From a virus, in IMG/VR virus record IMGVR_UViG_3300047408_000148, positions 1 through 46,883 of that record: DNA of 46,883 nt, one strand, 5' to 3'. The translations under genes and the position numbers were made by a program. Positions 13,383-35,317 of the stretch are shown in pieces. The notes under the pieces are model-generated. The model did no database searches. It saw nothing but the letters and a program-made list of their open reading frames with translations, and was not told the DNA's origin. Within the stretch, counting starts at the first letter, position 1, and every line of letters starts with the position of its first letter.

Positions 13383-13498
13383 CGAATGACCAGCCCGATC
13401 AGCACATAGAACACGTAGACGGTCCCGACAAACGCCGCTTCGATCCAGAGCGCGTTCAAGACGCCGATCAACAGACTGCCCTCGCGGGGATTCGTCAT
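13379..13498 (-). CDS. Very small membrane protein
   Basis: A 39-residue protein (MTNPREG start) with one long transmembrane helix (about 10-37, rich in Val, Ile, Phe, Tyr). Its coding status is supported by ATGA overlaps at both ends rather than by similarity. Confidence 0.55.
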   Translation of the reverse strand: MTNPREGSLLIGVLNALWIEAAFVGTVYVFYVLIGLVIR

Positions 13499-13677
13499 GA
13501 CGCCTCCCGGTCCGCAATCAGCGCGAGTCGTCTGCGCTGCTCCTCGTTGATTTCCTCGGTGTACTTCTTCCACGCGGTGAGCTTCTGGCTGTGGAGTGGG
13601 GTGTCCTGACTCCAGGCCAGTGTCCGGTAGAGGATCACGCCCACGGTGAAGCCGAGCAGGGGCAGGAGGTATTTCAT
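13495..13677 (-). CDS. Single-pass membrane or secreted protein with coiled tail
   Basis: A 60-residue protein with an N-terminal hydrophobic helix (2-20) followed by a charged helical tail rich in Lys, Glu and Arg. This is the architecture of a short inner-membrane spanin (Rz-like) or small anchored regulator. It overlaps both neighbours by 4 nt. No lipoprotein partner is adjacent, so the spanin idea is weak. Confidence 0.55.
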   Translation of the reverse strand: MKYLLPLLGFTVGVILYRTLAWSQDTPLHSQKLTAWKKYTEEINEEQRRRLALIADREAS

Positions 13678-14489
13678 GCCGTCACCGTCAGCATGCGATC
13701 GAGTAAATCCAGCGCCGACACTTGGAGTTGTCCGACGGTGGGCCTGAGCGCGGCCCTCGCAGCGGCCCTCGCAGCGGCCCCCGCAGCGGCCCACGCAGCG
13801 GCCCCCGCAGCGGCCCCCGCAGCGGCCCCCGCAGCGGCCCACGCAGCGTCCCTCGCAGCGGCCCCCGCAGCGGCCCTCGCAGCGGCCCCCGCAGCGGCCC
13901 CCGCAGCGTTCCACGCAGCGTCCCCCGCAGCGTCCCTCGCAGCGGCCCCCGCAGCGGCCCTCGCAGCGGCCCCCGCAGCGGCCCCCGCAGCGTTCCACGC
14001 AGCGTCCCCCGCAGCGGCCCCCGCAGCGGCCGAAGCCTCTTGCGCGACCGTCAGTGTTGACATCGCCGTCTTTGCTGACTTTGGATTGCAAATGGCATCA
14101 AGCGCCCGCAGCGCAGCCGCATGCGGCTTCAGGCTCTCGGTCAGATCCATCCATGCCGGAGTCTGGACACGCACCAGCCAGTCCAGCGCCAGATACGACC
14201 GAGTCCGTTCAACGGCCTTCGTGCTGCGCGATCCCACCAGCCGTGGGATGAACGGCTTCAGTAGCCGATTACGGTCCTCATCTGTCGGCAGCGCGTCATT
14301 CCATGAGATGACAAACGCGGCAATAACTGGACACGCGCACTGTGGAGAATCGCTGTGCGGTTCCCCAGCGAGCCAAGCAGCGGCTTCCATCGCGCAGACG
14401 CCAGCCTCACGTTCGCTATGACTCCCCTTCTTCAGATCGATCCCGAAGAAGCCGAGTGGCGGGAGCTTGTCTTGATAGACGGTTGTCAT
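13674..14489 (-). CDS. Protein with conserved N-terminal domain and Ala-rich tandem-repeat tail
   Basis: A 271-residue protein in two parts. Residues of about 1-140 form a globular domain with the segments SDSPQCACPVIAAFVISWND and PFIPRLVGSRST and a later LDWLVR..TPAWMDL, which I recognise from hypothetical proteins of actinobacteria and phages, where it is likewise followed by Ala/Trp/Asp repeats. Residues of about 155-250 are a run of 4-residue repeats (xAAG, xAAA, DAAW, NAAW), expected to be one long helix. The start at 14489 overlaps the upstream stop (ATGA). Function is unknown. Confidence 0.7.
   Translation of the reverse strand: MTTVYQDKLPPLGFFGIDLKKGSHSEREAGVCAMEAAAWLAGEPHSDSPQCACPVIAAFVISWNDALPTDEDRNRLLKPFIPRLVGSRSTKAVERTRSYLALDWLVRVQTPAWMDLTESLKPHAAALRALDAICNPKSAKTAMSTLTVAQEASAAAGAAAGDAAWNAAGAAAGAAARAAAGAAARDAAGDAAWNAAGAAAGAAARAAAGAAARDAAWAAAGAAAGAAAGAAAWAAAGAAARAAARAALRPTVGQLQVSALDLLDRMLTVTA
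13746..14033 (-). repeat. 12-bp tandem repeat array encoding Ala-rich helix
   Basis: About 24 near-identical 12-bp units of the form GCAGCGGCCCYC on the plus strand, with variants GCAGCGTTCCAC and GCAGCGTCCCTC. A larger block of about 84-96 bp appears twice (compare 13846-13925 with 13930-14010). The unit is a multiple of three, so length changes keep the frame. The opposite strand gives shadow open frames with Arg/Gly repeats. Confidence 0.9.
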
Positions 14490-16405: not shown

Positions 16406-16629
16406 TCCTCGCACCCTTCGTTCTCCGATTCGGTCAGGACAAAGTCCAGATGCTCGGTCAGCGCGGCCAAGACCCATTGGGTTAGTCGGCTCATGGGAAT
16501 ATGGGCAGCGGTCAGCGCGGCCATAATCGACTCGGTCCGCATGGTGACTTCCAGATGCCGCTTCAGGATGTGCTCGCCGGTCACGGCGGTCTGGTCGCAC
16601 GCCTTGTCGGTGAAATCACCGGGGTTCAT
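16402..16629 (-). CDS. Small helical protein of unknown function
   Basis: A 75-residue, mostly helical acidic protein (MNPGDFTDKA start). Overlaps the next upstream stop by 4 nt and the convergent repressor by 4 nt. The middle segment (RTESIMAALTAAHIPMSRLTQWVLAAL, partly) has an amphipathic helix-turn-helix look but no family match. Confidence 0.6.
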   Translation of the reverse strand: MNPGDFTDKACDQTAVTGEHILKRHLEVTMRTESIMAALTAAHIPMSRLTQWVLAALTEHLDFVLTESENEGCED

Positions 16630-16871
16630 GGCTTGGCTGAGACACTGGTGACTAACGCTCTGAACTTCCCCACCGTCATACAGTCCCGGAACAGATGCCC
16701 GTAGGGAGACTCTGCGCAGAGCATGTCGGTATCGTCAAAGTCATTGGCAATGACGATGTGCTTCTGGGTCGGATCAGGTGGGGCGAGCTGCAGGACCGGC
16801 CGTGGCGGGGCACAGCCTGTGTACAGGGCTCCGCATATAACCAGGGCTGTTATAGAGGCAGCGAAGCGCAT
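16626..16871 (-). CDS. Small predicted lipoprotein
   Basis: An 81-residue protein with a lipoprotein signal: MRFAA, a hydrophobic stretch and a lipobox (LYTGC, Cys20) followed by a Pro-rich linker. The mature part is about 60 residues. I chose the start at 16871 because the signal begins there; the longer frame has no support. An Rz1-like or exclusion role is possible, and a two-helix membrane protein gene lies directly upstream. Confidence 0.6.
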   Translation of the reverse strand: MRFAASITALVICGALYTGCAPPRPVLQLAPPDPTQKHIVIANDFDDTDMLCAESPYGHLFRDCMTVGKFRALVTSVSAKP

Positions 16872-16876
16872 GGCTT

Positions 16877-17029
16877 TCAGTGCTTGTACATGAATGTCAC
16901 CGTCGCGGTAATCGCTAGCGCCGACAGCCAGTAGCACACGTCCGCCGCCTTGCGTTCATACGCCCAACGACAGGCGTTGAGAAAATACAGACCCATAATC
17001 ACGTAATTGAAGACCTTCGGATCTTTCAC
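16877..17029 (-). CDS. Small two-helix membrane protein
   Basis: A 50-residue protein started at a GTG that overlaps the upstream stop (GTGA). It has two hydrophobic helices (about 7-20 and 31-46) joined by a basic turn. The topology fits a small holin-like or regulatory membrane protein. It precedes a lipoprotein gene by 5 nt. Confidence 0.55.
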   Translation of the reverse strand: MKDPKVFNYVIMGLYFLNACRWAYERKAADVCYWLSALAITATVTFMYKH

Positions 17030-19028: not shown

Positions 19029-19343
19029 TCATGCATGTGCAGCCTTCTTCGCCGCGATGATGTTCTGCAGCGCCACCACCGCGTCAATGACACCACCAGC
19101 CGCTGCCGCAACCTCGGCATCGTCCAGCAGATCCTTGTTGGTCAGGCTCTCGGTGTTCTCGAGTGCGCCTTTGACCACGGATAGCACGGCAGCTTTCTTC
19201 TCAGCCCCGGTCAGGTCTTTGATGTGCGGGATCGTCTTGACCAGTTCCTCGATCCGGCCGACTTCAGGCACGAGGGTGGCGATGATATTGGAGGTCACGT
19301 CGAAGACCTTTCTCCACGGCACTTTCTTGAAGGGGTTACTCAT
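19029..19343 (-). CDS. Small Ala-rich helical protein next to holin candidate
   Basis: A 104-residue protein starting MSNPFKKVPWRKV, a basic N-terminus followed by amphipathic helices and an Ala-rich C-terminus. Its start overlaps the stop of the holin-like gene (ATGA), an arrangement seen for phage lysis genes and for holin regulators. No enzymatic motif was seen. Confidence 0.55.
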   Translation of the reverse strand: MSNPFKKVPWRKVFDVTSNIIATLVPEVGRIEELVKTIPHIKDLTGAEKKAAVLSVVKGALENTESLTNKDLLDDAEVAAAAGGVIDAVVALQNIIAAKKAAHA

Positions 19344-19531
19344 TGATCCTCCGAATGCGGCAGCGGCGAGCTTGCCAACTTGCCAGAGATGATCCCGACC
19401 ACGAAGGACACCAGCGAAATCCAGTGCTGGACGTGGTCTGGAATCCAGGGGAACAGATCGAAGTTCAGCGCGAGGCCCGTCGCCACCGCGCCGACCATAC
19501 CGATCCACCAATAGGCTGAATCTCGTGTCAT
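19340..19531 (-). CDS. Small two-helix membrane protein, holin-like
   Basis: A 63-residue protein with two hydrophobic helices (about 9-22 and 35-51) and a short polar tail with acidic end. This is the topology of class II holins. A weak G-rich ribosome binding site precedes the ATG. No endolysin lies next to it; the nearest enzyme genes are the glycosidase-like pair at 20.3-23.1 kb, so the lysis role is a hypothesis. Confidence 0.5.
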   Translation of the reverse strand: MTRDSAYWWIGMVGAVATGLALNFDLFPWIPDHVQHWISLVSFVVGIISGKLASSPLPHSEDQ

Positions 19532-19650: not shown

Positions 19651-20355
19651 ATGGCTGACGAGAATCCTACTCCACCTCTTTGCGCTTGCGGCTGCGATGA
19701 ATACGTGCGCAGATACAAGGGCAAGTGGCGCACATTCAGGCATGGCCACCACGTGCGCATAGTCGCAAAAGGTCCGTCTCACCCGCAATGGAAGACGGGT
19801 CGATTTATAGACAAGCGCGGTTATGTCCACGCGTGGGTCGGTCGCGACCACCCGCTGTCTAATAAGCATGGCTATGCGCGCGAACACCGACTTGTGATGT
19901 TTGGAATGATTGGGCGACCACTTCTGCCAACCGAGGTTGTTCATCACAAAGACGGCAATAAAGCCAACAACGCTCCGGACAATCTTGAACTCTGCGCGAA
20001 TCAAAGCGAACACCTGAAGAAACAGCACGCCGACATGGATCGCCGTCGCAAGATTCCAATTCCGAAGCTGGTTTGCCACTGTGGGATCGTGGTGAAGGCG
20101 CAGGGATTGTGCGATACGCACTATGCAGCCCTTCGCCGCCGCAGAAGCGGTCTGCAGATCGCCATCCGTCGCGCTGTGTGCTGGTGCGGAAAGCCACATG
20201 TCGCTCGCGGGCTGTGCGATCGTCATTACAGCCAAGCTAAGCGGCTGGGATTCCCGGACACCATGGGGACGTTGGTGCTTCATCGACGCCACAAGACCCC
20301 CAAAGCATCGAGTGATGTCCATCCGGGCTCGGGAGCCGACACTCCAGACTGCTGA
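19651..20355 (+). CDS. HNH homing endonuclease (mobile, opposite strand)
   Basis: A 234-residue protein with a central HNH domain (HGYAREHRLVMF, then EVVHHKDGNKANNAPDNLEL), characteristic of phage homing endonucleases. Two other Cys/His clusters flank it: CACGCDEY at the N-terminus, and CHCG..GLCDTHY and CWCG..GLCDRHY at the C-terminus, which look like repeated zinc-binding specificity modules. A strong AGGAGG precedes the start by 8 nt. It is on the plus strand inside a minus-strand block, consistent with insertion, and overlaps the 3' end of the glycosidase-like gene by 76 nt. Confidence 0.9.
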   Translation: MADENPTPPLCACGCDEYVRRYKGKWRTFRHGHHVRIVAKGPSHPQWKTGRFIDKRGYVHAWVGRDHPLSNKHGYAREHRLVMFGMIGRPLLPTEVVHHKDGNKANNAPDNLELCANQSEHLKKQHADMDRRRKIPIPKLVCHCGIVVKAQGLCDTHYAALRRRRSGLQIAIRRAVCWCGKPHVARGLCDRHYSQAKRLGFPDTMGTLVLHRRHKTPKASSDVHPGSGADTPDC

Positions 20356-21557
20356 CACCTGACCATGAATGGTCCGATGACATAGGTTCTGGCTGATTCG
20401 GATTGACCGTCTTCTACAATGCGGCGATATGCGCCGTAAGGCGCATCAGCCGGAAACGCATTCATCGCATCCAACGCAACAGCGGCCAGCACGCGCTCAG
20501 CGGGAGTTGGCAGGTTCCCATATTTCCCGCTCTCGCTATGCCACGTCGCTCCAGCCCCAAAGAGTGAGGCTCCCCCAAAGTACGCGCGCCATGAGGCAAT
20601 GTCTGTTCCAACATCTTCCAACTTGGCAGGTTCGTCAGCGACCGCAGGTTCGTGGAAGGCTGGATCGCTAGGGCTCCCTGGTCCGCCGCCGTCGTAATAC
20701 TCTTTTAAGTCGTGTGTGCGCCTAGGGAAATCGGGCGTGCGCGCAGTATGCGGGGTCAGGTACTGCCCTCGATGCCCCGCCACGGTCAAGCCATCGGTCC
20801 ACAGCAACTGGGTCGCGGGAACGTGCAACGCGGCCGGATCAACCTTGTCATGGACACCGGGTTCATTCACGAGCTCCACCAGCAAATTGGCTTCACTGAA
20901 ACTGGCGAAGAAATGGTCTACGAGGGCTTGGGCCTCACTGGTGGGCTTGTACCCGGTGAACAGCACTTCTTCGACGTAGAACCCGCGTTGGGCGACATAG
21001 GCGAGGAATCCGTGGACGCACTCGTCTGAGGCTTGCGGCCAGCCGGTCCCCGGCCATTCGACGTACAGGAACACGCGCAGGATGTTGAAGCCCTTGAAGG
21101 CGTCAAGGAATGGGGTAATGTCTTCGCCCTTGCAGAATCGGTCCTGTAGGCCAAACGCCGTGACCCCCTTCCAGCGCCACGCCTGACTATCCTGATAGAA
21201 CAGTTTCCCGTTGGCGGTGAGTCGTGGGGTGGGAGGCGCAATGCGCTCGAGCACCACCGACAGACGCTTGTGGCGATCGACAGGCACGCAATCAGCCGGC
21301 GCATACGGGTGAAAGCCTTCATGTTCCACGGTGAGCGCGTAGCACCCCGTGTGGACGGTGAAGTAGGCCCAGCCGAAATCGTTCGCATCTTTGGCGACTC
21401 CCGCGAAGGTGACGTGACTCCCCGCCTGCAATTGTCCTGAGGGGTCGCTGATGCTGACTGAGAAATCCCAGGCTGGGGATTCAGGAGGCTTCGGCGGACC
21501 AATCGGCCCACACGCATTCAGCGTAAGAAGGACCGCACAAAGCGTCAGACGCCTCAT
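20280..21557 (-). CDS. Lipid-anchored TIM-barrel glycoside hydrolase-like protein
   Basis: A 425-residue protein with a lipoprotein signal (LTLNAC near residue 16, then Gly/Pro), a small beta-sandwich domain (about 30-110, Fn3/CnaB-like) and a C-terminal TIM-barrel-like region: KGVTAFGLQDRF at the start of the barrel, FNILRVFLYV, and LLVELVNEPGVHD. The NEP motif carries the acid/base Glu of clan-A (GH5-like) glycosidases. The start at 21557 fits the signal and the 4-nt overlap with the next gene. It could cleave host surface or periplasmic glycan. A lipid anchor is unusual for a phage enzyme. Its 3' end is overlapped by the HNH gene. Confidence 0.75.
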   Translation of the reverse strand: MRRLTLCAVLLTLNACGPIGPPKPPESPAWDFSVSISDPSGQLQAGSHVTFAGVAKDANDFGWAYFTVHTGCYALTVEHEGFHPYAPADCVPVDRHKRLSVVLERIAPPTPRLTANGKLFYQDSQAWRWKGVTAFGLQDRFCKGEDITPFLDAFKGFNILRVFLYVEWPGTGWPQASDECVHGFLAYVAQRGFYVEEVLFTGYKPTSEAQALVDHFFASFSEANLLVELVNEPGVHDKVDPAALHVPATQLLWTDGLTVAGHRGQYLTPHTARTPDFPRRTHDLKEYYDGGGPGSPSDPAFHEPAVADEPAKLEDVGTDIASWRAYFGGASLFGAGATWHSESGKYGNLPTPAERVLAAVALDAMNAFPADAPYGAYRRIVEDGQSESARTYVIGPFMVRCQQSGVSAPEPGWTSLDALGVLWRR

Positions 21558-23140
21558 TGGAAGATGTCCTCCTGCACATGACCGAACAGCGGGAACAACC
21601 CGAACTCCCCGAAGTTCGCTGGGAGGTTCTGCGGCCCATGCTCGCCACGAGTCGCCCATGACTGCACCAGCACATGGTCAATGGCGAAAGAGGCCTCTCG
21701 ATGGAGTGTGTCGGCTATGTCCATCACTTCAGAGAAGTAGGCGTCATCGGTCAGGTGGGAGTAGCCGACGAGATACACGCCAAGTGGCACCTTGTAATCG
21801 TCCGCATACTGCTTGGCGGTGCGGATGATGTCGTAGGCGTCTTTCCCGGCGCGATGCCAGTCCATGTCGATGTGCCAGCCGTCGAGATGACAGCCCCATG
21901 AATCAAGGCCCATGAGGAACGTGCGCTGCGTCTCCAGATCAATCTCTGGGCAGGCTTCAGCCCAGACGACCTTGACCCCCGGCATCGCGGCTCTGGCAGC
22001 TTCCACAAACTTGACCACCGCAAAGACGCTTTCCTCGAACGGCTGTTCTGGACGTTGCTTCGCTGAGGTCAGCGGTTCATCCATCGTGAGGTAGCAGACG
22101 CGATGCCCCTTCGCCAGCACGCGCTGGGCGATTCGCGGCAGATCGGCTATCGCGTTCTCCGCGTGCCAGTCTCCGGGCTTGATGCTGCCCATTTCGATCC
22201 CGAGGTTCACGCCCTGTGCGCGAATCCCAGAGAGGGTGTCAACCTGCCCATAGCGGGCATCCTCCAAGATCCACTGCACATAGAGGCCAAACACATCCAC
22301 CGTGGCGAGGTCGCCATGAATCGCGGCAACCACGTCGCTGTCAATGTTGGGATGCAGCCAGTAGCGTTCGCTGGTTTTGAGTGGCGGAATGGGCGGGACA
22401 GGGGTCGGCATAGGTGGCTTCGGTGGTTTTGGATCTGGAGGCTTGGGTGGTTCGGGCTTCGGCGGGTCCGGCGGGACCGGGACAGCTTCGAGCGGGAAGT
22501 CCACACCGCCAAGCTCGGACACGTCGAACCACAGGGCTTCCGCGTAGCCGGGTTTGACGAGATAGACACAGACCGTAGTCCCGCTACGACGGACCCGGAT
22601 AAAGTAAACCTGCCCAGTCGAGAGGACGTATCGCTTCCCCTGCCACTCCGCGATGCAGCCGGTGTCACCCTGCCCGATCGTCAGATCACCGAAGTGTGAC
22701 CATTCCCACAGCGGACCAATCACCCCACAGGTCTGTGCCCATGCGGTGCCGTGGTTGACCGTTTGATCTCCGGTGATCACCTCGCCTGAGTCCCCGACAT
22801 ACCGGAAGCCCTGCGACCCGGCCGCCACCGTGGACAGCACCAGCTCTTGCCCGACATAGATCAGCGGGTTGATGCCGTAGGTCGCATAGTACGGAACGGT
22901 CCATCCGCTGTCGTCGTACTGCACCGCCCAGCCCGTCTCTGACCCTTGTCCCGCGAGTTTCAGCGGTCCGGTGTCCGTGATGCGGAGATACAGCGGCAGG
23001 GCTTGAGAAGCCAGCGGCAGCAACGGCTGGTCGTTGACCTGCACGCGCCAGCCCACACCAGGGACGTTGACCAGATAGGCGAGCTGCTGATCAATCCGGC
23101 AGTCGCCATACCAGGCGTTTGGCAGGGTGCGACGGATCAC
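21554..23140 (-). CDS. Two-domain protein: beta domain, Pro-rich linker, TIM-barrel glycosidase-like domain
   Basis: A 528-residue protein with no signal peptide. Residues 1-220 are beta-rich with repeated Gly/Trp strands. Residues of about 222-255 are a Pro/Lys linker (PPKPEPPKPPDPKPP type). Residues of about 260-528 form a barrel-like domain with HIDMDWHR and YLTMDEPLTS near strand ends, fitting a glycosidase. The beta domain and linker resemble a particle-attached enzyme, perhaps a virion depolymerase or exolysin. It is separated from the divergent control region by one short gene and is co-transcribed with the lipid-anchored glycosidase. The family was not determined. Confidence 0.65.
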   Translation of the reverse strand: MIRRTLPNAWYGDCRIDQQLAYLVNVPGVGWRVQVNDQPLLPLASQALPLYLRITDTGPLKLAGQGSETGWAVQYDDSGWTVPYYATYGINPLIYVGQELVLSTVAAGSQGFRYVGDSGEVITGDQTVNHGTAWAQTCGVIGPLWEWSHFGDLTIGQGDTGCIAEWQGKRYVLSTGQVYFIRVRRSGTTVCVYLVKPGYAEALWFDVSELGGVDFPLEAVPVPPDPPKPEPPKPPDPKPPKPPMPTPVPPIPPLKTSERYWLHPNIDSDVVAAIHGDLATVDVFGLYVQWILEDARYGQVDTLSGIRAQGVNLGIEMGSIKPGDWHAENAIADLPRIAQRVLAKGHRVCYLTMDEPLTSAKQRPEQPFEESVFAVVKFVEAARAAMPGVKVVWAEACPEIDLETQRTFLMGLDSWGCHLDGWHIDMDWHRAGKDAYDIIRTAKQYADDYKVPLGVYLVGYSHLTDDAYFSEVMDIADTLHREASFAIDHVLVQSWATRGEHGPQNLPANFGEFGLFPLFGHVQEDIFQ

Positions 23141-23307
23141 GCCTTCACCTTCCGCACCGCTTTCCGAATCTCGCGTCTCAATACCTGATCCAATTCAATC
23201 GTGGACGCGGTGTAGCGGAAGGTCTGCACGAGCCAATAGCGGATGCGGTCCGCCGCGTGCTGGATGGCTTGCTCCTCAACCGTGGACGTCCGTGTCGGGC
23301 GTGGCAT
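23137..23307 (-). CDS. Small protein of unknown function, first leftward gene
   Basis: A 56-residue protein, helical and basic at the C-terminus (RREIRKAVRKVKA). It is the first gene of the leftward arm and overlaps the next start by 4 nt. The start choice (23307) is uncertain because no good ribosome binding site is visible, and the frame stays open to 23424. Confidence 0.5.
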   Translation of the reverse strand: MPRPTRTSTVEEQAIQHAADRIRYWLVQTFRYTASTIELDQVLRREIRKAVRKVKA

Positions 23308-23400
23308 GGAGGACTGAACGCCACCCAGCCGAGACCGGCATCCCCGCGAGACTCCATCTGAATCTGCGCACCGGGAAAGGCTGAACTGGCGTTCCCGCCT

Positions 23401-23429
23401 AGCATAAACCTCGACCATACGCAAATCAA
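23401..23429 (-). promoter_or_regulatory. Leftward promoter at the divergent region
   Basis: On the minus strand TTGATT (23424-23429), a 17-nt spacer and TATGCT (23401-23406), 4 of 6 at each box. It would drive the glycosidase-like gene set, with a leader of about 90 nt to the small gene at 23307. Confidence 0.45.
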
Positions 23430-29703: not shown

Positions 29704-30212
29704 TGGCACCCAAAACAGAAGCGAAGAAGAAGCCCCGCGTCTCCGTGCTCGAGCGCCGGCTGCAAAATCCCTTCGGGGAACCATCGTCACCGATTGACCT
29801 CACCGACCCGGCGATGGTCGCGAGAGGCTTCAATAAGGCGGTCGGGTCCCAGCAGATTTACAAGGCGAAGCGCAACGGCTGGGATTTCGTCACCCCCGAC
29901 ATGATTGCGGATGTCGATCAGGCCGGCGGGTATCGACCCTCGACGGATGGACAGCGGATGGTCCGTGGCGAGCGGGAAGAAGAAGTCCTGATGTACATGC
30001 CCAAGTCGGACCGCGAGCAGATCGAGTTGGCGAAGGCGAAGAAGAATGTCCGTGACATGCAGATGGGACGGCAGAAAGAAGCCGTGCTGCAGGCGGCGGC
30101 GACCCAATTCGGCGGACAGGCGTCGGACTATTTGAACGGGCGCATTGTCGGCACGGTCACCGACCAGATCGAGCGGATTCATTCGGACGCCAACCCGGAT
30201 GAGCATCTGTAA
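29703..30212 (+). CDS. Structural-operon protein of unknown function
   Basis: A 169-residue protein with a GTG start overlapping the previous stop by 1 nt. It has a very basic N-terminus (KTEAKKKPRV), a central GWDFVTPDMIADVDQAGGY segment and a C-terminal helix. Similar size and position suggest a head or connector component, but no family was recognised. Confidence 0.6.
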   Translation: MAPKTEAKKKPRVSVLERRLQNPFGEPSSPIDLTDPAMVARGFNKAVGSQQIYKAKRNGWDFVTPDMIADVDQAGGYRPSTDGQRMVRGEREEEVLMYMPKSDREQIELAKAKKNVRDMQMGRQKEAVLQAAATQFGGQASDYLNGRIVGTVTDQIERIHSDANPDEHL

Positions 30213-31278
30213 TCTGGATCATTTCGCGGAGTCCTATTGGGACCCGCGGCGGCATGTCCTGGTGGGCGGGGCGTTCGATCCGCTCCACGAAGGACATCTG
30301 GCGTATTTCGAGGAGGCGCGGAAGCTGGGACCTTTGGTATGTGCGGTTAGCCCAGACCGGACCGTGGCAGCGAAAGGAAAGATTCCGTGCCTCCCGGAAG
30401 CTACGAGACTCAAGGTATTGAATGCGTGCTCGCTGGTGGAGCATGTGATTCTGGCCGCGGATAAGGCCGCCGTCATTCGGGCGTTGAAGCCGAAGGCGTA
30501 TGTCATCGGCTCGGACTGGCTGACCGCCTTTCCCGACGAGGAGAAGCAAGCCTGCCTCGATGTCACCACGCGTGTCGTGTTTGCCAGTTGTCGCGAAAAC
30601 TCCTCCACCGCGCTCCTGGCTGACTACGAGCGCAGACGCAACGCTAGGAAGCTCTACGCATTTGAACAGTTCATCCAGCAGCAGCAACCAGCCGCGAAGC
30701 CGTGGGAACCGGTCATTGACTACTCATGGGAGGCGCGGAAGGTGGTCGAGGGACCGCACGCGCAGTTGATTAAGGATGCGTTTGCACCGAGACACGCACT
30801 TGATGCCGGCTGTGGACGACACGGGATTCTCGTTCGTATGCTGCGCAATCTAGGCGTGGATGCCGTTGGCTTTGATGCACAAGCGGAATGCGTAGAGGAC
30901 CAGAAATATCGCTGGCGCTACATGCTGTATGAAGACGATCTGCTCACTGCCGAACGTGAAGAAAGCGGAGAACCGTGCGACCTCGTCATCTGCCGCGAAG
31001 TCTTAGAGCACCTGACCGTCCGCCAGTTGGCCGTCGCGGTGCGCAACCTCGTGACGCTGTCCAGTAAATATGTCTATGTCACGACGAGGTTCACAACAGG
31101 CCCACATCTGCTGGACGTAGACGGCTCTGACTCGCTCGACCCCACACACATCAGCATGTTGAATCAGGATCTGCTCAGAACGCTGTTTGTGCTGGAGGGC
31201 TGTACACGCCGTGCTGACCTCGAGCAGAAGCTGGACTGGATGAAGAAATCCCGCGTGCTGGTCTACCAAGTGCCATGA
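30199..31278 (+). CDS. Bifunctional nucleotidyltransferase / methyltransferase fusion
   Basis: A 359-residue protein with two domains. Residues of about 18-130 are a cytidylyltransferase-like nucleotidyltransferase with GGAFDPLHEGHL (23-34, the GxFDxxHxGH motif) and a later conserved GSDW. Residues of about 195-320 are a Rossmann methyltransferase with LDAGCG (about 201-206) and ICREVLEHL. I started it at ATG 30199, where the sequence becomes family-like. Such nucleotidyltransferases activate a phosphorylated sugar, alcohol or lipid head group. The fusion could activate and methylate the same small molecule. It heads the sugar module; the substrate is unknown. Confidence 0.8.
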   Translation: MSICNLDHFAESYWDPRRHVLVGGAFDPLHEGHLAYFEEARKLGPLVCAVSPDRTVAAKGKIPCLPEATRLKVLNACSLVEHVILAADKAAVIRALKPKAYVIGSDWLTAFPDEEKQACLDVTTRVVFASCRENSSTALLADYERRRNARKLYAFEQFIQQQQPAAKPWEPVIDYSWEARKVVEGPHAQLIKDAFAPRHALDAGCGRHGILVRMLRNLGVDAVGFDAQAECVEDQKYRWRYMLYEDDLLTAEREESGEPCDLVICREVLEHLTVRQLAVAVRNLVTLSSKYVYVTTRFTTGPHLLDVDGSDSLDPTHISMLNQDLLRTLFVLEGCTRRADLEQKLDWMKKSRVLVYQVP

Positions 31279-31388
31279 CGTGGACTGATTACTTCTACTG
31301 CTTCCTGCTGGTGGTGTTCCAGGTGCTGGCCGAGGGCTGGCTGGACGAATGGCGGGATCGTCGCCATGCGAGGCGCAACCGTGATTGA
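31275..31388 (+). CDS. Very small membrane protein
   Basis: A 37-residue peptide with one hydrophobic helix (about 6-21) and a basic Arg-rich tail, overlapping the preceding stop (ATGA) and the next gene's start. The linkage suggests translation; the role is unknown. Confidence 0.45.
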   Translation: MTWTDYFYCFLLVVFQVLAEGWLDEWRDRRHARRNRD

Positions 31389-32118
31389 CGCCGTGCTCTC
31401 GTATCACATGAATCCGCAGACGTGCGGGGTCAGTAAATTCAACCATGTGCTGGCGAAGCGATTGGGCGTTTCGGTCGGACCGCTGCACAGCATGTGTATC
31501 AACTACGAGCATCCGCTGGTGTCGATTAAGCCGTCCGAGATTCACCCAGAAGAACTCTTTCGCTCGTGGCACACCTATGACCTCCTGCTGCATGACCGCT
31601 CGCTGAATTCGGAGAGCGACCTCGTGCAATCCGCCGGTCGCGTCTGGTATGCCGATGAGCTCGGCTGTCCGTCCACCATCGACGGCAACCCACACCGCGG
31701 GGCCTATCGCGTGCTGGTCTTTGGGATGGCGCACAAGCTGAACCTGCCGCACTTTGAGAAGTTGAAAGGGCAACTCGATGAAGCACACCCGGACTACACG
31801 GTCGAACTCTCGACAGCGGTCCATGAAGGCACCCCGTGGGACGAGGCGCTTACGGAGTCTGTCGCTGCCATGCGGCGCATCTACGGTGACAAGCTCAGAG
31901 TGCTTGGTTTCCTCGGTGATGACGCTCTCGCCAAAACACTTCAAGAAGTTGATGCGGTTGCGGCGTATTTCGTTCCTGCTCTAAGAGCGAACAATACGTC
32001 CTATTGGGCGGCGGTCGAAGCAGGCAAAACCATCTACACCAACCGGGACGAGCACTCCCCGAAAGAGACTGACCCGCCCGCGTCATGGGACAAACTCGTG
32101 GAGTTAATCCGTGCGTGA
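31366..32118 (+). CDS. Glycosyltransferase-like protein (GT4-type fold)
   Basis: A 250-residue protein. The N-terminus has VLSYHMNPQTCGVSKFNHVLAK, like the first strand and glycine loop of GT4-like transferases, and the C-terminal part has FLGDDALAKTLQEVDAVAAYFVPALRANNTSYWAAVEAGKTIY (in pieces), like the donor-binding region. It is shorter than usual GT4 enzymes (about 350-400 residues), so it may be a reduced or divergent version. It would transfer an activated sugar, probably the nonulosonate or a sugar built by its neighbours. Confidence 0.6.
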   Translation: MRGATVIDAVLSYHMNPQTCGVSKFNHVLAKRLGVSVGPLHSMCINYEHPLVSIKPSEIHPEELFRSWHTYDLLLHDRSLNSESDLVQSAGRVWYADELGCPSTIDGNPHRGAYRVLVFGMAHKLNLPHFEKLKGQLDEAHPDYTVELSTAVHEGTPWDEALTESVAAMRRIYGDKLRVLGFLGDDALAKTLQEVDAVAAYFVPALRANNTSYWAAVEAGKTIYTNRDEHSPKETDPPASWDKLVELIRA

Positions 32119-33169
32119 ACTGATCATCGACGAGCGTCGGATTGCGGACGACGAGCCCTGCTATGTGGTGGCGGAACTCGGTCACAACCATGGCGGATCG
32201 TTCGACACCGCAAAGGGCATGATCCATGCGGCGGCAGATTCTGGCGCACACGCCGTGAAACTCCAGAAGCGGGACAATCAGACCCTCTACAGTAAAGCCC
32301 TGCTGGATCAGGTCTACGACAACGAGAACAGCTACGGCCCCACCTATGGCGCGCACCGGGAAGCCTTAGAGCTCTCCGCGGAGGATTTACAGAAGCTCCA
32401 CGCACTGGCTCGGTGGCGTCAGGTAGCGTGCTTTGCCACGGCGTTCGATGAAGCGTCCGCGGATGTCCTGGCGGAACTCGGCTATCCTGCGTTCAAACTC
32501 GCCTCTGGCGCGTTGACGGACCTCGCCCTGCTCAAGTATGTCGGCCAGTTTCACAAGCCGATCATCCTCTCCACCGGGGGTGGAGCCTACTGCCATGTCG
32601 ATGAGGCCGTGAATGTCCTGACCGGCACTGGGGCACCCTTTGCCTTGCTCCATGCGACCGCGGCGTATCCCTGCCAGTTCACCGAGTTGAACCTGAAGTG
32701 CATTCCGGTGATGCGGGAACGGTATCCGGACGTAGTCATTGGCTGGTCCGCGCACGTCCACAATATCTCGATGATGCTGCAGGCCCACGCCTACGGAGCC
32801 AGAATCCTCGAATGCCATTTCACGTTGAACCGCTCGAGCAAGGGAACGGACCATGCCTTCAGCCTCGAACCCGCCACGCTCCGGAAACTCTGCAAAGACC
32901 TGGAGCGAGCGCATCAGGCGGCGGGCGATGGCGTCAAGGTCTACTACGAATCAGAGCGCAAGCCTATCTCGAAAATGCGGCGCCGTCATACCGCTGACGG
33001 ATTGCGCATCACAGGAGCCCTCGATGGTCTTACTGGAGAAACTACAGCAACGGATTCTGGAGCGCGAGTGGGGACAGGAAGTCTTCATTGTGGAGTCCCC
33101 GAACTATCTCGGCAAGATTCTCCACATGAGAAAAGGCACGAAAGGCGGTCTGCAATACCACGTCGATAA
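32111..33169 (+). CDS. neuB: Sialic-acid-synthase family (NeuB-like nonulosonate synthase)
   Basis: A 352-residue protein whose first 300 residues are a NeuB TIM barrel: VVAELGHNHGG near the start, AVKLQKR, FKLASGALTD, ILSTGG, LHATAAYPC, GWSAHVHNI and the conserved ECHFTLNRSSKGTDHAFSLEP. It would condense phosphoenolpyruvate with an N-acyl sugar to a nonulosonate. It lacks the C-terminal antifreeze/SAF domain that closes the active site in most NeuB proteins. Residues past about 305 lie over the cupin gene in another frame and look unstructured. Start GTG 32111 overlaps the upstream stop by 8 nt. Which sugar it makes cannot be told. Confidence 0.85.
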   Translation: MRELIIDERRIADDEPCYVVAELGHNHGGSFDTAKGMIHAAADSGAHAVKLQKRDNQTLYSKALLDQVYDNENSYGPTYGAHREALELSAEDLQKLHALARWRQVACFATAFDEASADVLAELGYPAFKLASGALTDLALLKYVGQFHKPIILSTGGGAYCHVDEAVNVLTGTGAPFALLHATAAYPCQFTELNLKCIPVMRERYPDVVIGWSAHVHNISMMLQAHAYGARILECHFTLNRSSKGTDHAFSLEPATLRKLCKDLERAHQAAGDGVKVYYESERKPISKMRRRHTADGLRITGALDGLTGETTATDSGARVGTGSLHCGVPELSRQDSPHEKRHERRSAIPRR

Positions 33170-33413
33170 GGATGAGGCGTTCTATCTCATCGAGGGCGCG
33201 GCGGTGGTCCGGACAGACGCAGGACAGGGGCTGATCGAACTCACCATGAATCCCGGCGAAGGCTTTCGGATTCCACCTGGGGCGATTCATCAGGTCGAGG
33301 CGGTCAGCGACTGCACGCTGATTGAGTGGAGCACACCACATTACGACGACCGCGTGCATGTGGAATCACGGTATGGACTCCCGGAGGCCGGCGGGTTGCC
33401 GACTACGAAATGA
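33024..33413 (+). CDS. Cupin (type II phosphomannose-isomerase-like)
   Basis: A 129-residue single cupin: GQEVFIVESPNYLGKILHM, the metal motif GLQYHVDKDEAFYLIEG (H-x-D-x-E type with Glu), then NPGEGFRIPPGAIHQVEAV for the second motif. The family resembles PMI-type and sugar-metabolising cupins that often accompany neuB clusters. AGGAG lies 6 nt before the ATG. It begins inside the last 146 nt of the NeuB frame, so the two overlap in different frames. The reaction is not known. Confidence 0.8.
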   Translation: MVLLEKLQQRILEREWGQEVFIVESPNYLGKILHMRKGTKGGLQYHVDKDEAFYLIEGAAVVRTDAGQGLIELTMNPGEGFRIPPGAIHQVEAVSDCTLIEWSTPHYDDRVHVESRYGLPEAGGLPTTK

Positions 33414-33541
33414 CACAACTCGGCTTCATTGTACTCTTCGCGATTCTCTGGGTGGCCTCCGTCATCGGGTTGGCGGTGGCGCTTGTCGCGTGGCCCGATG
33501 AACTCGGTAGTTGCCCGAGCCGGTATCGGAGGGGCTGGTGA
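33410..33541 (+). CDS. Small membrane protein inside the sugar module
   Basis: A 43-residue peptide with one transmembrane helix (about 4-28) and a Cys/Arg-rich tail, overlapping the cupin stop (ATGA) and the NeuA start (GTGA). Its conserved coupling suggests it is real. It could anchor the synthesis enzymes at the membrane, but this is speculative. Confidence 0.5.
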   Translation: MTQLGFIVLFAILWVASVIGLAVALVAWPDELGSCPSRYRRGW

Positions 33542-34284
33542 ACATTGTGGCCCTGATTCCCGCTCGCGGTGGCAGCAAGCGCATCCCGCGTAAGAACGTC
33601 AAGCTGCTGGGTGGCAAGCCGCTGATTCAGTGGACGATTGACGCGGCCAAAGCCAGCGGTGTGTTTTTTACCGTTATTGTGTCAACCGACGACGAGGACA
33701 CCAAGCGTGTCGCGCTAGATGCCGGTGCCGGGTTCACGATGCGCCCTGACGGCATCAGCGGTGATGCATCACCAGACATTTACTGGGTGCGTGATGCGAT
33801 GGAACGACAACAGCGCAGCTTTATAAGGGCTGATGCTTTTATGATTCTGCGGCCAACGTCGCCATTCCGAACGGCCGTCACGATCCGGCGAGCGACGGAA
33901 CAGTTTGCGTATGGCAAGTGCTCATCGATCCGCGCCGTTGAGCCTGTCAGGCAACATCCTGGGAAGATGTGGCAGGAGCGTTACGGCAGCATGACTCCTC
34001 TAATTGCGGATGAATGGCCTGCCGCCTCGCACGAGGCTGGACTCACGACACGCATTCCATGGCACTCGCAACCGACGCAATCGCTTCCGAAGGTCTACGT
34101 CCAGAACTCCAGTCTGGAAATCGCGTGGACGTGGTGTGTGACCGTATTCGACAGCATCAGCGGCCCCAAGGTCGCGCCCTTCTTTACTGAGGAGTGGGAA
34201 GGCTTTTCCATTGACTATCCGGAGGACTGGGACCGTGCGGAACGCCATGTGGCCGATCTACAAGCGGCTGCTTCAACGCAGTAA
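33538..34284 (+). CDS. neuA: CMP-nonulosonate synthetase (NeuA-like cytidylyltransferase)
   Basis: A 248-residue nucleotidyltransferase with the NeuA/CMP-KDO synthetase signature: ALIPARGGSKRIPRKN at the start (phosphate-binding loop), GGKPLIQWTI, IVSTDDEDTKRVA, MRPDGISGD, ILRPTSPFR, and a C-terminal FSIDYPEDW. I started it at the GTG overlapping the upstream stop. It would activate the nonulosonate made by the NeuB homologue to its CMP form for a transferase. The nonulosonate specificity is inferred from the adjacent neuB-like gene. Confidence 0.85.
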   Translation: MNIVALIPARGGSKRIPRKNVKLLGGKPLIQWTIDAAKASGVFFTVIVSTDDEDTKRVALDAGAGFTMRPDGISGDASPDIYWVRDAMERQQRSFIRADAFMILRPTSPFRTAVTIRRATEQFAYGKCSSIRAVEPVRQHPGKMWQERYGSMTPLIADEWPAASHEAGLTTRIPWHSQPTQSLPKVYVQNSSLEIAWTWCVTVFDSISGPKVAPFFTEEWEGFSIDYPEDWDRAERHVADLQAAASTQ

Positions 34285-35317
34285 CAAGCCGATTCTCGTC
34301 GGCCCATTCACATCAGAAATCGGCTTCGAGTCGCTGTACTGGGTGCCCTTTGTCCAGTCCCTCGGCATCGACCCCTCCCGGCTGATTCCCATCACGCGAG
34401 GCGGGGCCGCGGTCTGGTATGGCGCACCCCACGGCATTGAACTCTACGATCTGCGCGACCCGAAAGATGTCCGCATCGAGAACATGGTACAGCATGCCCG
34501 CACCGGCCTGCTCAAGCAGACCCGCGTCACCGCATTTGACCGGTCGCTTCTGAAGGATGCGGCCAAGGCCGCTGGGCTGACGTCGTATCACGTCCTCCAC
34601 CCATCCTGGATGTATCAGACCCTCGCCCCGTTCTGGGAGGGGCGCGTCGGGCTGGACTGGATTCTGTCGCGGCTGACCGTGGAACAGACGGTCAATGGCG
34701 TCTCTCAGCGGGCCATTGCCAACCTGCGCGTGTTGCCGTTACCGGAGACTGTGAAACTCCCGGCAAACTTCTGCGCGGCCCGGTTCTATTTCCGTTCAAC
34801 GTTTCCGCACTCCCAGGTGACACTGGATTGTGCGCGGGAATGCCTCAAGCAGATTGCCCAGAACCAGCCGGTCGTCCTGCTCAACCCGGACGTCCATGCA
34901 GACGAGCATGTGGATGTCCCGGTGAAGGACATTCCCAACGTCTTCAAGCTAAGTGATTTTATGAAGACCGCGCCGCGGGATAATCTGGCGATCCAATCTG
35001 CGGTGCTGGCGAAATCGACGGGATTTGTCGGGACCTATGGAGGACTCGCGCAGCTCGCGCTCCGGTTGGGGAAACCCTCGGTCAGCTTCTACTGGGACTG
35101 GAAAGGCACCTCACTCGCGCACAAGCACCTGTCGGAAGCCCTCAGTCTGAACACCGGGATCGCCTTCCTGACCTTGCGCCTGACCGATATTCCCCTGCTC
35201 AAGACGGTGGCTCCGAATCTGTCGTTCCAGACGTCGAGCAGTCAGGGTGGTCTGCAGCAAAGCGGGACCCAGCAACCAGCGCCACAGCCGTCTCATGAGG
35301 AAGGAATCCTATCGTAG
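34247..35317 (+). CDS. Probable glycosyltransferase-fold protein
   Basis: A 356-residue protein (ATG 34247; an earlier ATG at 34211 is possible). It starts with ILVGPFTSEIGFESLYWVPF, similar to GT-B-like enzymes of surface-glycan clusters, and has FVGTYGGLAQLALRLGKPSVSFYWD, a pattern like the nucleotide-sugar binding C-terminal domain. The last 30 residues are Gln/Ser-rich and disordered. It ends the rightward operon and overlaps the convergent gene by 25 nt. The likely role is transfer of the sugar made by the module. The exact family was not identified. Confidence 0.6.
   Translation: MWPIYKRLLQRSNKPILVGPFTSEIGFESLYWVPFVQSLGIDPSRLIPITRGGAAVWYGAPHGIELYDLRDPKDVRIENMVQHARTGLLKQTRVTAFDRSLLKDAAKAAGLTSYHVLHPSWMYQTLAPFWEGRVGLDWILSRLTVEQTVNGVSQRAIANLRVLPLPETVKLPANFCAARFYFRSTFPHSQVTLDCARECLKQIAQNQPVVLLNPDVHADEHVDVPVKDIPNVFKLSDFMKTAPRDNLAIQSAVLAKSTGFVGTYGGLAQLALRLGKPSVSFYWDWKGTSLAHKHLSEALSLNTGIAFLTLRLTDIPLLKTVAPNLSFQTSSSQGGLQQSGTQQPAPQPSHEEGILS

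What the first reader, a model, noticed from the sequence alone, without database searches (positions are those of the whole stretch)
20280..23140. Two adjacent TIM-barrel glycosidase-like proteins, one lipid-anchored
A 425-residue protein with lipobox and GH5-like NEP motif sits next to a 528-residue two-domain protein with a Pro-rich linker and a barrel. Phage glycosidases are usually virion depolymerases; a lipoprotein enzyme made in the host is unusual. They could prune the host surface glycan while the phage sugar module rebuilds it.
Basis: partly seen in the sequence, partly recalled or inferred. Interest (0 to 1): 0.75.

Follow-up and report, generated by a model that had tools for sequence, protein, structure and literature searches.

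The report
Phage GH5-like enzyme with lipobox
An uncultured phage carries two overlapping genes, one for a probable sugar-chain-cutting enzyme of the cellulase (GH5) type that seems to be fixed to the host's envelope by a lipid, the other for a protein of unknown activity; such enzymes are known in soil viruses, so this is an odd and very rare variant, not a new kind of system.

Summary
The two genes are real: 425 aa (21557-20280, -) and 528 aa (23140-21554, -), overlapping by ATGA, both kept by purifying selection in a sister phage (dN/dS about 0.17 and 0.13). P0001 is a divergent GH5-like (clan GH-A) enzyme. Its family profile has a GH5 endoglucanase as best PDB hit (E 0.0021, NEP in register), and against a GH5 profile it scores 32.6, versus at most 17.1 for 60 shuffled controls. 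Glu232 (NEP) and Glu309 (ADEP) are conserved in all three known members. It does not pass PF00150. Its lipobox (LTLNAC) is conserved in the sister but carries Asn at -2, which strict rules reject; a third member lacks any signal. P0002 has a conserved N-terminal domain, a Pro-rich linker and a barrel-like alpha/beta C-terminal domain, but GH25, GH114, GH123 and GH5 comparisons are at or near noise, so "glycosidase" is unsupported for it. In G002 the relatives follow a holin-like gene and an SLT endolysin, so I favour secreted or lysis-released glycan cleavage late in infection. The prune-and-rebuild link to the sugar module is untested. Only three genomes carry the family; host unknown.

The parts
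21554..23140 (-). P0002, 528 aa (GTG start): N-terminal beta-rich domain 1-215, Pro-rich linker 216-254, C-terminal alpha/beta domain 255-528 (barrel-like, function unassigned)
   Evidence: ortholog 92% in G001; N-domain plus linker also in G002/L009; dN/dS 0.13
20280..21557 (-). P0001, 425 aa: signal and lipobox 1-16, Pro-rich tether, Ig/CarboxypepD_reg-like domain about 31-105 (weak), GH5-like domain about 110-425 with Glu232 (NEP) and Glu309 (ADEP)
21510..21557 (-). signal peptide and lipobox MRRLTLCAVLLTLNA-C16
   Evidence: sequence; conserved in G001; Asn at -2 fails the strict pattern
21554..21557 (-). ATGA overlap of the stop of P0002 and the start of P0001 (likely translational coupling)
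   Evidence: same arrangement in G001
23137..23424 (-). small gene upstream (95 aa or shorter), overlapping the start of P0002
   Evidence: 99% identical in G001; no family
19340..19531 (-). 63-aa ORF with two hydrophobic segments, holin-like by appearance only; overlaps the next gene
   Evidence: no family and no phage match; absent in G001
19029..19343 (-). 104-aa helical protein
   Evidence: 60% identical in G001; PHROG of unknown function E 0.0013
19651..20355 (+). HNH endonuclease gene on the opposite strand between P0001 and the 63-aa ORF, overlapping the 3' end of P0001; absent in G001

Best explanation
P0001 is a divergent GH5-like (clan GH-A) retaining glycosidase made in the infected cell, exported through its signal peptide and fixed by a lipid at Cys16, so that its catalytic domain cuts a beta-linked polysaccharide of the host envelope, capsule or matrix, with Glu232 as acid/base and Glu309 as nucleophile. 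P0002 is probably made from the same message but has no export signal; it is most likely a glycan-binding or glycan-acting partner set free at lysis. Together they most likely clear envelope or extracellular glycan late in infection, for release and spread of progeny. Shown: gene structure, conservation, GH5 relationship of the beta2-beta4 part of P0001, conserved acids. Inferred: catalysis, anchoring, substrate, timing, and the role of P0002.
For: Family profile (3 members): best PDB hit is GH5 endoglucanase 6gjf, E 0.0021, catalytic NEP aligned. GH5 profile from 20 bacterial PF00150 matches: hhalign score 32.6 against at most 17.1 for 60 column-shuffled controls, and only 15-17 against GH25, GH114 and GH123. 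Invariant in all three members: R161, N231, E232, H270, E309 among others. Lipobox conserved in window and sister. Operon overlap with AGGAGG. Purifying selection. In G002 the homologous pair follows a holin-like gene and an SLT endolysin.
Against: No significant Pfam, PHROG or NCBIfam hit even at lax thresholds. The C-terminal half with Glu309 is not aligned to GH5 by any profile; that assignment is by position and motif. Lipobox has Asn at -2. The G002 member has no signal or lipobox. In the window the pair is not beside an identified endolysin, and the neighbouring 63-aa holin-like ORF is missing from G001. AlphaFold models failed.
Confidence: 0.42

Rival explanations
1. Virion depolymerase pair: the N-domain and Pro-rich linker of P0002 fix it to the tail, and the two proteins cut surface glycan on entry.
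For: In G002 the pair lies downstream of tail-like genes and the lysis genes; linker plus conserved N-domain look like a modular adhesin; N-domain residues 61-215 are the most conserved part of P0002 (97%, dN/dS 0.05).
Against: P0001 has a signal peptide and lipobox, which virion proteins do not need; in the window the pair heads a leftward operon away from head and tail genes; no PHROG tail family matches.
Confidence: 0.22
2. One reading: host surface remodelling, where the anchored enzyme prunes host glycan during infection while the phage NeuB/CMP-sugar/glycosyltransferase module rebuilds it, for example for superinfection exclusion.
For: The sugar module is real: HldE-like/methyltransferase, NeuB (2.1e-66) and CMP-sugar synthetase. 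Phage-encoded lipoproteins are known in superinfection exclusion (PMC3952083, PMC9586334).
Against: The module is on the other strand and separately organised; no shared regulation seen; the G002 member has no signal, and its neighbours in the part read are tail and lysis genes, not sugar genes.
Confidence: 0.15
3. P0002 is the phage's endolysin (a barrel muramidase with a wall-binding N-domain) and P0001 a helper of lysis.
For: No endolysin family was found among the window proteins scanned; in G002 the barrel-less N-domain protein sits beside a separate SLT endolysin.
Against: No match of the barrel to GH25 above shuffled controls, none to Pfam or PDB; endolysins can be undetectable by sequence in such divergent phages.
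Confidence: 0.12
4. Auxiliary metabolic gene: the enzyme feeds the infected host by degrading environmental polysaccharide.
For: A soil virus GH5 with proven endomannanase activity is known (PMC6786970).
Against: Only three phage genomes carry this family, and no host homolog was found in about 1,000 genomes sampled from three phyla or in scans of the genome collection, unlike a gene borrowed recently from a host.
Confidence: 0.09

Closest known systems
GH5 cellulases, e.g. PDB 6gjf endoglucanase (Pfam PF00150)
   Same: beta1-beta4 region with conserved Arg and NEP in register
   Different: fails PF00150; C-terminal half unalignable; Ig-like domain and lipobox added
Soil-virus GH5 endomannanase (Emerson et al. 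2018, PMC6786970)
   Same: GH5-type enzyme carried by an uncultured phage
   Different: that one belongs to recognised GH5 and was assayed; its sequence was not compared with P0001 here
Phage-encoded lipoproteins of superinfection exclusion (Ltp of TP-J34, PMC3952083; T5, PMC9586334)
   Same: phage-made lipoprotein on the host envelope
   Different: those exclude other phages and are, to my knowledge, not enzymes
Uncultured Caudovirales GH5-annotated protein in BFVD (A0A6J5PWD3)
   Same: rank 4 in the Foldseek search with the poor P0001 model
   Different: E 0.05, not significant

Membership tests
GH5 (clan GH-A), for P0001 | passes the family model PF00150 at its cut-off | tested here: not met
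   no PF00150 hit at E<=1 for P0001 or at E<=5 for its relatives
GH5 (clan GH-A), for P0001 | NEP acid/base Glu at the end of beta4 with Arg on beta2, in register | tested here: met
   N231-E232-P233 aligned with NEP of 6gjf, E 0.0021; hhalign 32.6 vs shuffled max 17.1
GH5 (clan GH-A), for P0001 | nucleophile Glu on beta7 | tested here: inconclusive
   E309 (ADEP) invariant in three members, but no profile alignment covers it
GH5 (clan GH-A), for P0001 | (beta/alpha)8 barrel | tested here: inconclusive
   AlphaFold pLDDT 39 with two sequences; Foldseek nothing significant
GH5 (clan GH-A), for P0001 | glycosidase activity | not testable with these tools
   needs an assay
Bacterial lipoprotein, for P0001 | signal peptide with lipobox ending in Cys | tested here: inconclusive
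   MRR plus hydrophobic stretch plus LTLNAC conserved in two phages; Asn at -2 fails the strict pattern, passes if -2 is left free
GH25 endolysin, for the P0002 C-domain | similarity to Glyco_hydro_25 | tested here: not met
   hhalign 12.1 vs shuffled max 16.5
GH123 and GH114, for the P0002 C-domain | similarity to the family profile | tested here: not met
   16.5 vs shuffled max 22.4, and 13.1 vs shuffled max 22.8
GH5, for the P0002 C-domain | similarity to the GH5 profile | tested here: inconclusive
   20.8 vs shuffled max 20.3
Phage virion depolymerase | present in the virion | not testable with these tools
   needs virion proteomics; no tail PHROG match

The most novel reading that the evidence does not exclude
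A phage-made, lipid-anchored glycosidase works on the surface of the still living host and, together with the phage's own sialic/pseudaminic-acid-type module, rewrites the host glycan coat during infection.
Probability: 0.12. Interest if true: 0.8.

Novelty: new variant of a known kind. Interest (0 to 1): 0.4.

Why it matters
Phage glycosidases are usually thought of as virion parts or lysins. One that is exported and anchored by the infected cell would put a phage enzyme on the outside of its own host, with consequences for release, biofilm escape or exclusion of rivals. It is testable with a single gene. The family is not recognised by Pfam, PHROGs or NCBIfam, so annotation pipelines overlook it.

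Tried and rejected
Searches for relatives: eight scans of viral contigs (seven by protein, one by DNA pattern), two of the genome collection, tblastn against phages and plasmids, and about 1,000 whole genomes by profile gave only G001 and G002; the 16 genome pattern matches were chance. AlphaFold on two-sequence alignments failed (pLDDT 35 and 39), so the Foldseek lists are not used as evidence, although GH5 entries occur among them. The P0002 C-domain was tested against GH25, GH114, GH123 and GH5, all at or near noise. The longer start of P0001 (21659) was rejected: no Shine-Dalgarno there, AGGAGG before 21557. A relation between the P0002 C-domain and the P0001 family was tested: hhalign 18.9, E 0.08, none. 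Artificially varied query sequences were generated but dropped and not used.

Full report
The window is a single uncultured phage record of 46,883 bases. A sister genome, G001 (49 kb), is collinear with it up to circular permutation. Terminase, portal, a major head protein and an SU10-type adaptor are recognisable; its large terminase has only distant relatives in the phage collection (27% identity for the best) and its portal none. The host is unknown.

Observation. Both ORFs exist as described. P0002 (528 aa) and P0001 (425 aa) overlap by ATGA, with an AGGAGG upstream of the P0001 start. The same overlap is present in G001. Nei-Gojobori dN/dS between the two phages is 0.13 for P0002 and 0.17 for P0001, so both code for functional proteins. 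P0001 from residue 246 on and P0002 residues 471-528 have high or saturated dS, which points to recombined segments.

P0001. No curated family matches. A relative with 48% identity over the core was found in a third phage contig, G002. With a three-member profile, the best of 177,635 PDB sequences is a GH5 endoglucanase (6gjf, E 0.0021), aligned through beta1-beta4 with the NEP motifs in register. Independently, a GH5 profile made from 20 bacterial PF00150 matches aligns to the same region: 32.6 against a maximum of 17.1 in 60 column-shuffled controls, and 15.5-17.1 against GH25, GH114 and GH123. I therefore call it GH5-like. I do not file it in GH5: the PF00150 cut-off is not met, and the nucleophile half is not aligned. 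Glu232 and Glu309 are invariant in the three members.

Lipid anchor. MRRLTLCAVLLTLNA-C16 is conserved in G001. The strict lipobox pattern (from memory) does not allow Asn at -2; I hold anchoring as likely but not shown. The G002 member begins at the catalytic domain, without signal, lipobox or Ig-like domain.

P0002. The N-domain is strongly conserved (97% at 61-215) and recurs, with a Pro-rich linker, in G002 as a 345-aa protein without the C-domain. The C-domain can be read as eight beta segments alternating with helices, from the sequence and a low-confidence model; acids at predicted strand ends include D354-E355 (MDEP) and D425/D427. No glycosidase family scores clearly above shuffled controls. 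A glycosidase is possible but not supported.

Context. Downstream of P0001 lie an HNH gene on the other strand, a 63-aa ORF with two hydrophobic segments and a 104-aa helical protein. G001 lacks the HNH gene and the 63-aa ORF. In G002 the pair follows tail-like genes, a membrane protein resembling a holin and an SLT-domain lysin (PF01464, 2.5e-10). That favours a late, lysis-linked or release-linked role. No lysin family was recognised among the window proteins scanned.

Comparison. A soil viral GH5 with shown endomannanase activity exists (PMC6786970), and phage lipoproteins on the host surface are known for superinfection exclusion (PMC3952083, PMC9586334). The combination of the two in one phage protein was not found in the papers searched here; absence from the held library is weak evidence.

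Verdict. A real pair of genes under purifying selection: one GH5-like, probably lipid-anchored enzyme and one unassigned modular protein. New variant of a known kind, interest 0.4.

Noticed in passing
window 19651-20355 +: HNH endonuclease gene on the strand opposite to the P0002/P0001 operon, overlapping the 3' end of P0001 and absent from the sister phage; the P0001 C-termini differ between the two phages.
   Followed up: partly
window 30145-35317 +: Sugar module: HldE-like cytidylyltransferase/methyltransferase, NeuB, PseF-like CMP-sugar synthetase, putative glycosyltransferase. The synthetase is only 52% identical to G001 while the neighbouring gene is 99.7% identical, which suggests a swap.
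   Followed up: partly
window 13750-14031: 12-bp tandem repeat, 23.5 copies, coding for a Cys-Gly-Arg-rich repeat on the minus strand (ORF 13495-14091).
   Followed up: no
L005:1903-2511 (G001) -: 202-aa ORF with a hydrophobic N-terminus that looks like a secreted trypsin-type protease (read by eye), without a counterpart seen in the window.
   Followed up: no
window 16626-16937 -: Small protein with a signal-like stretch and a GALYTGC lipobox-like motif, a possible second phage lipoprotein; no counterpart seen in G001.
   Followed up: no
L009:11198-11677 +: In G002 a small protein with a hydrophobic start and a Cys follows the GH5-like gene, a possible lipoprotein.
   Followed up: no
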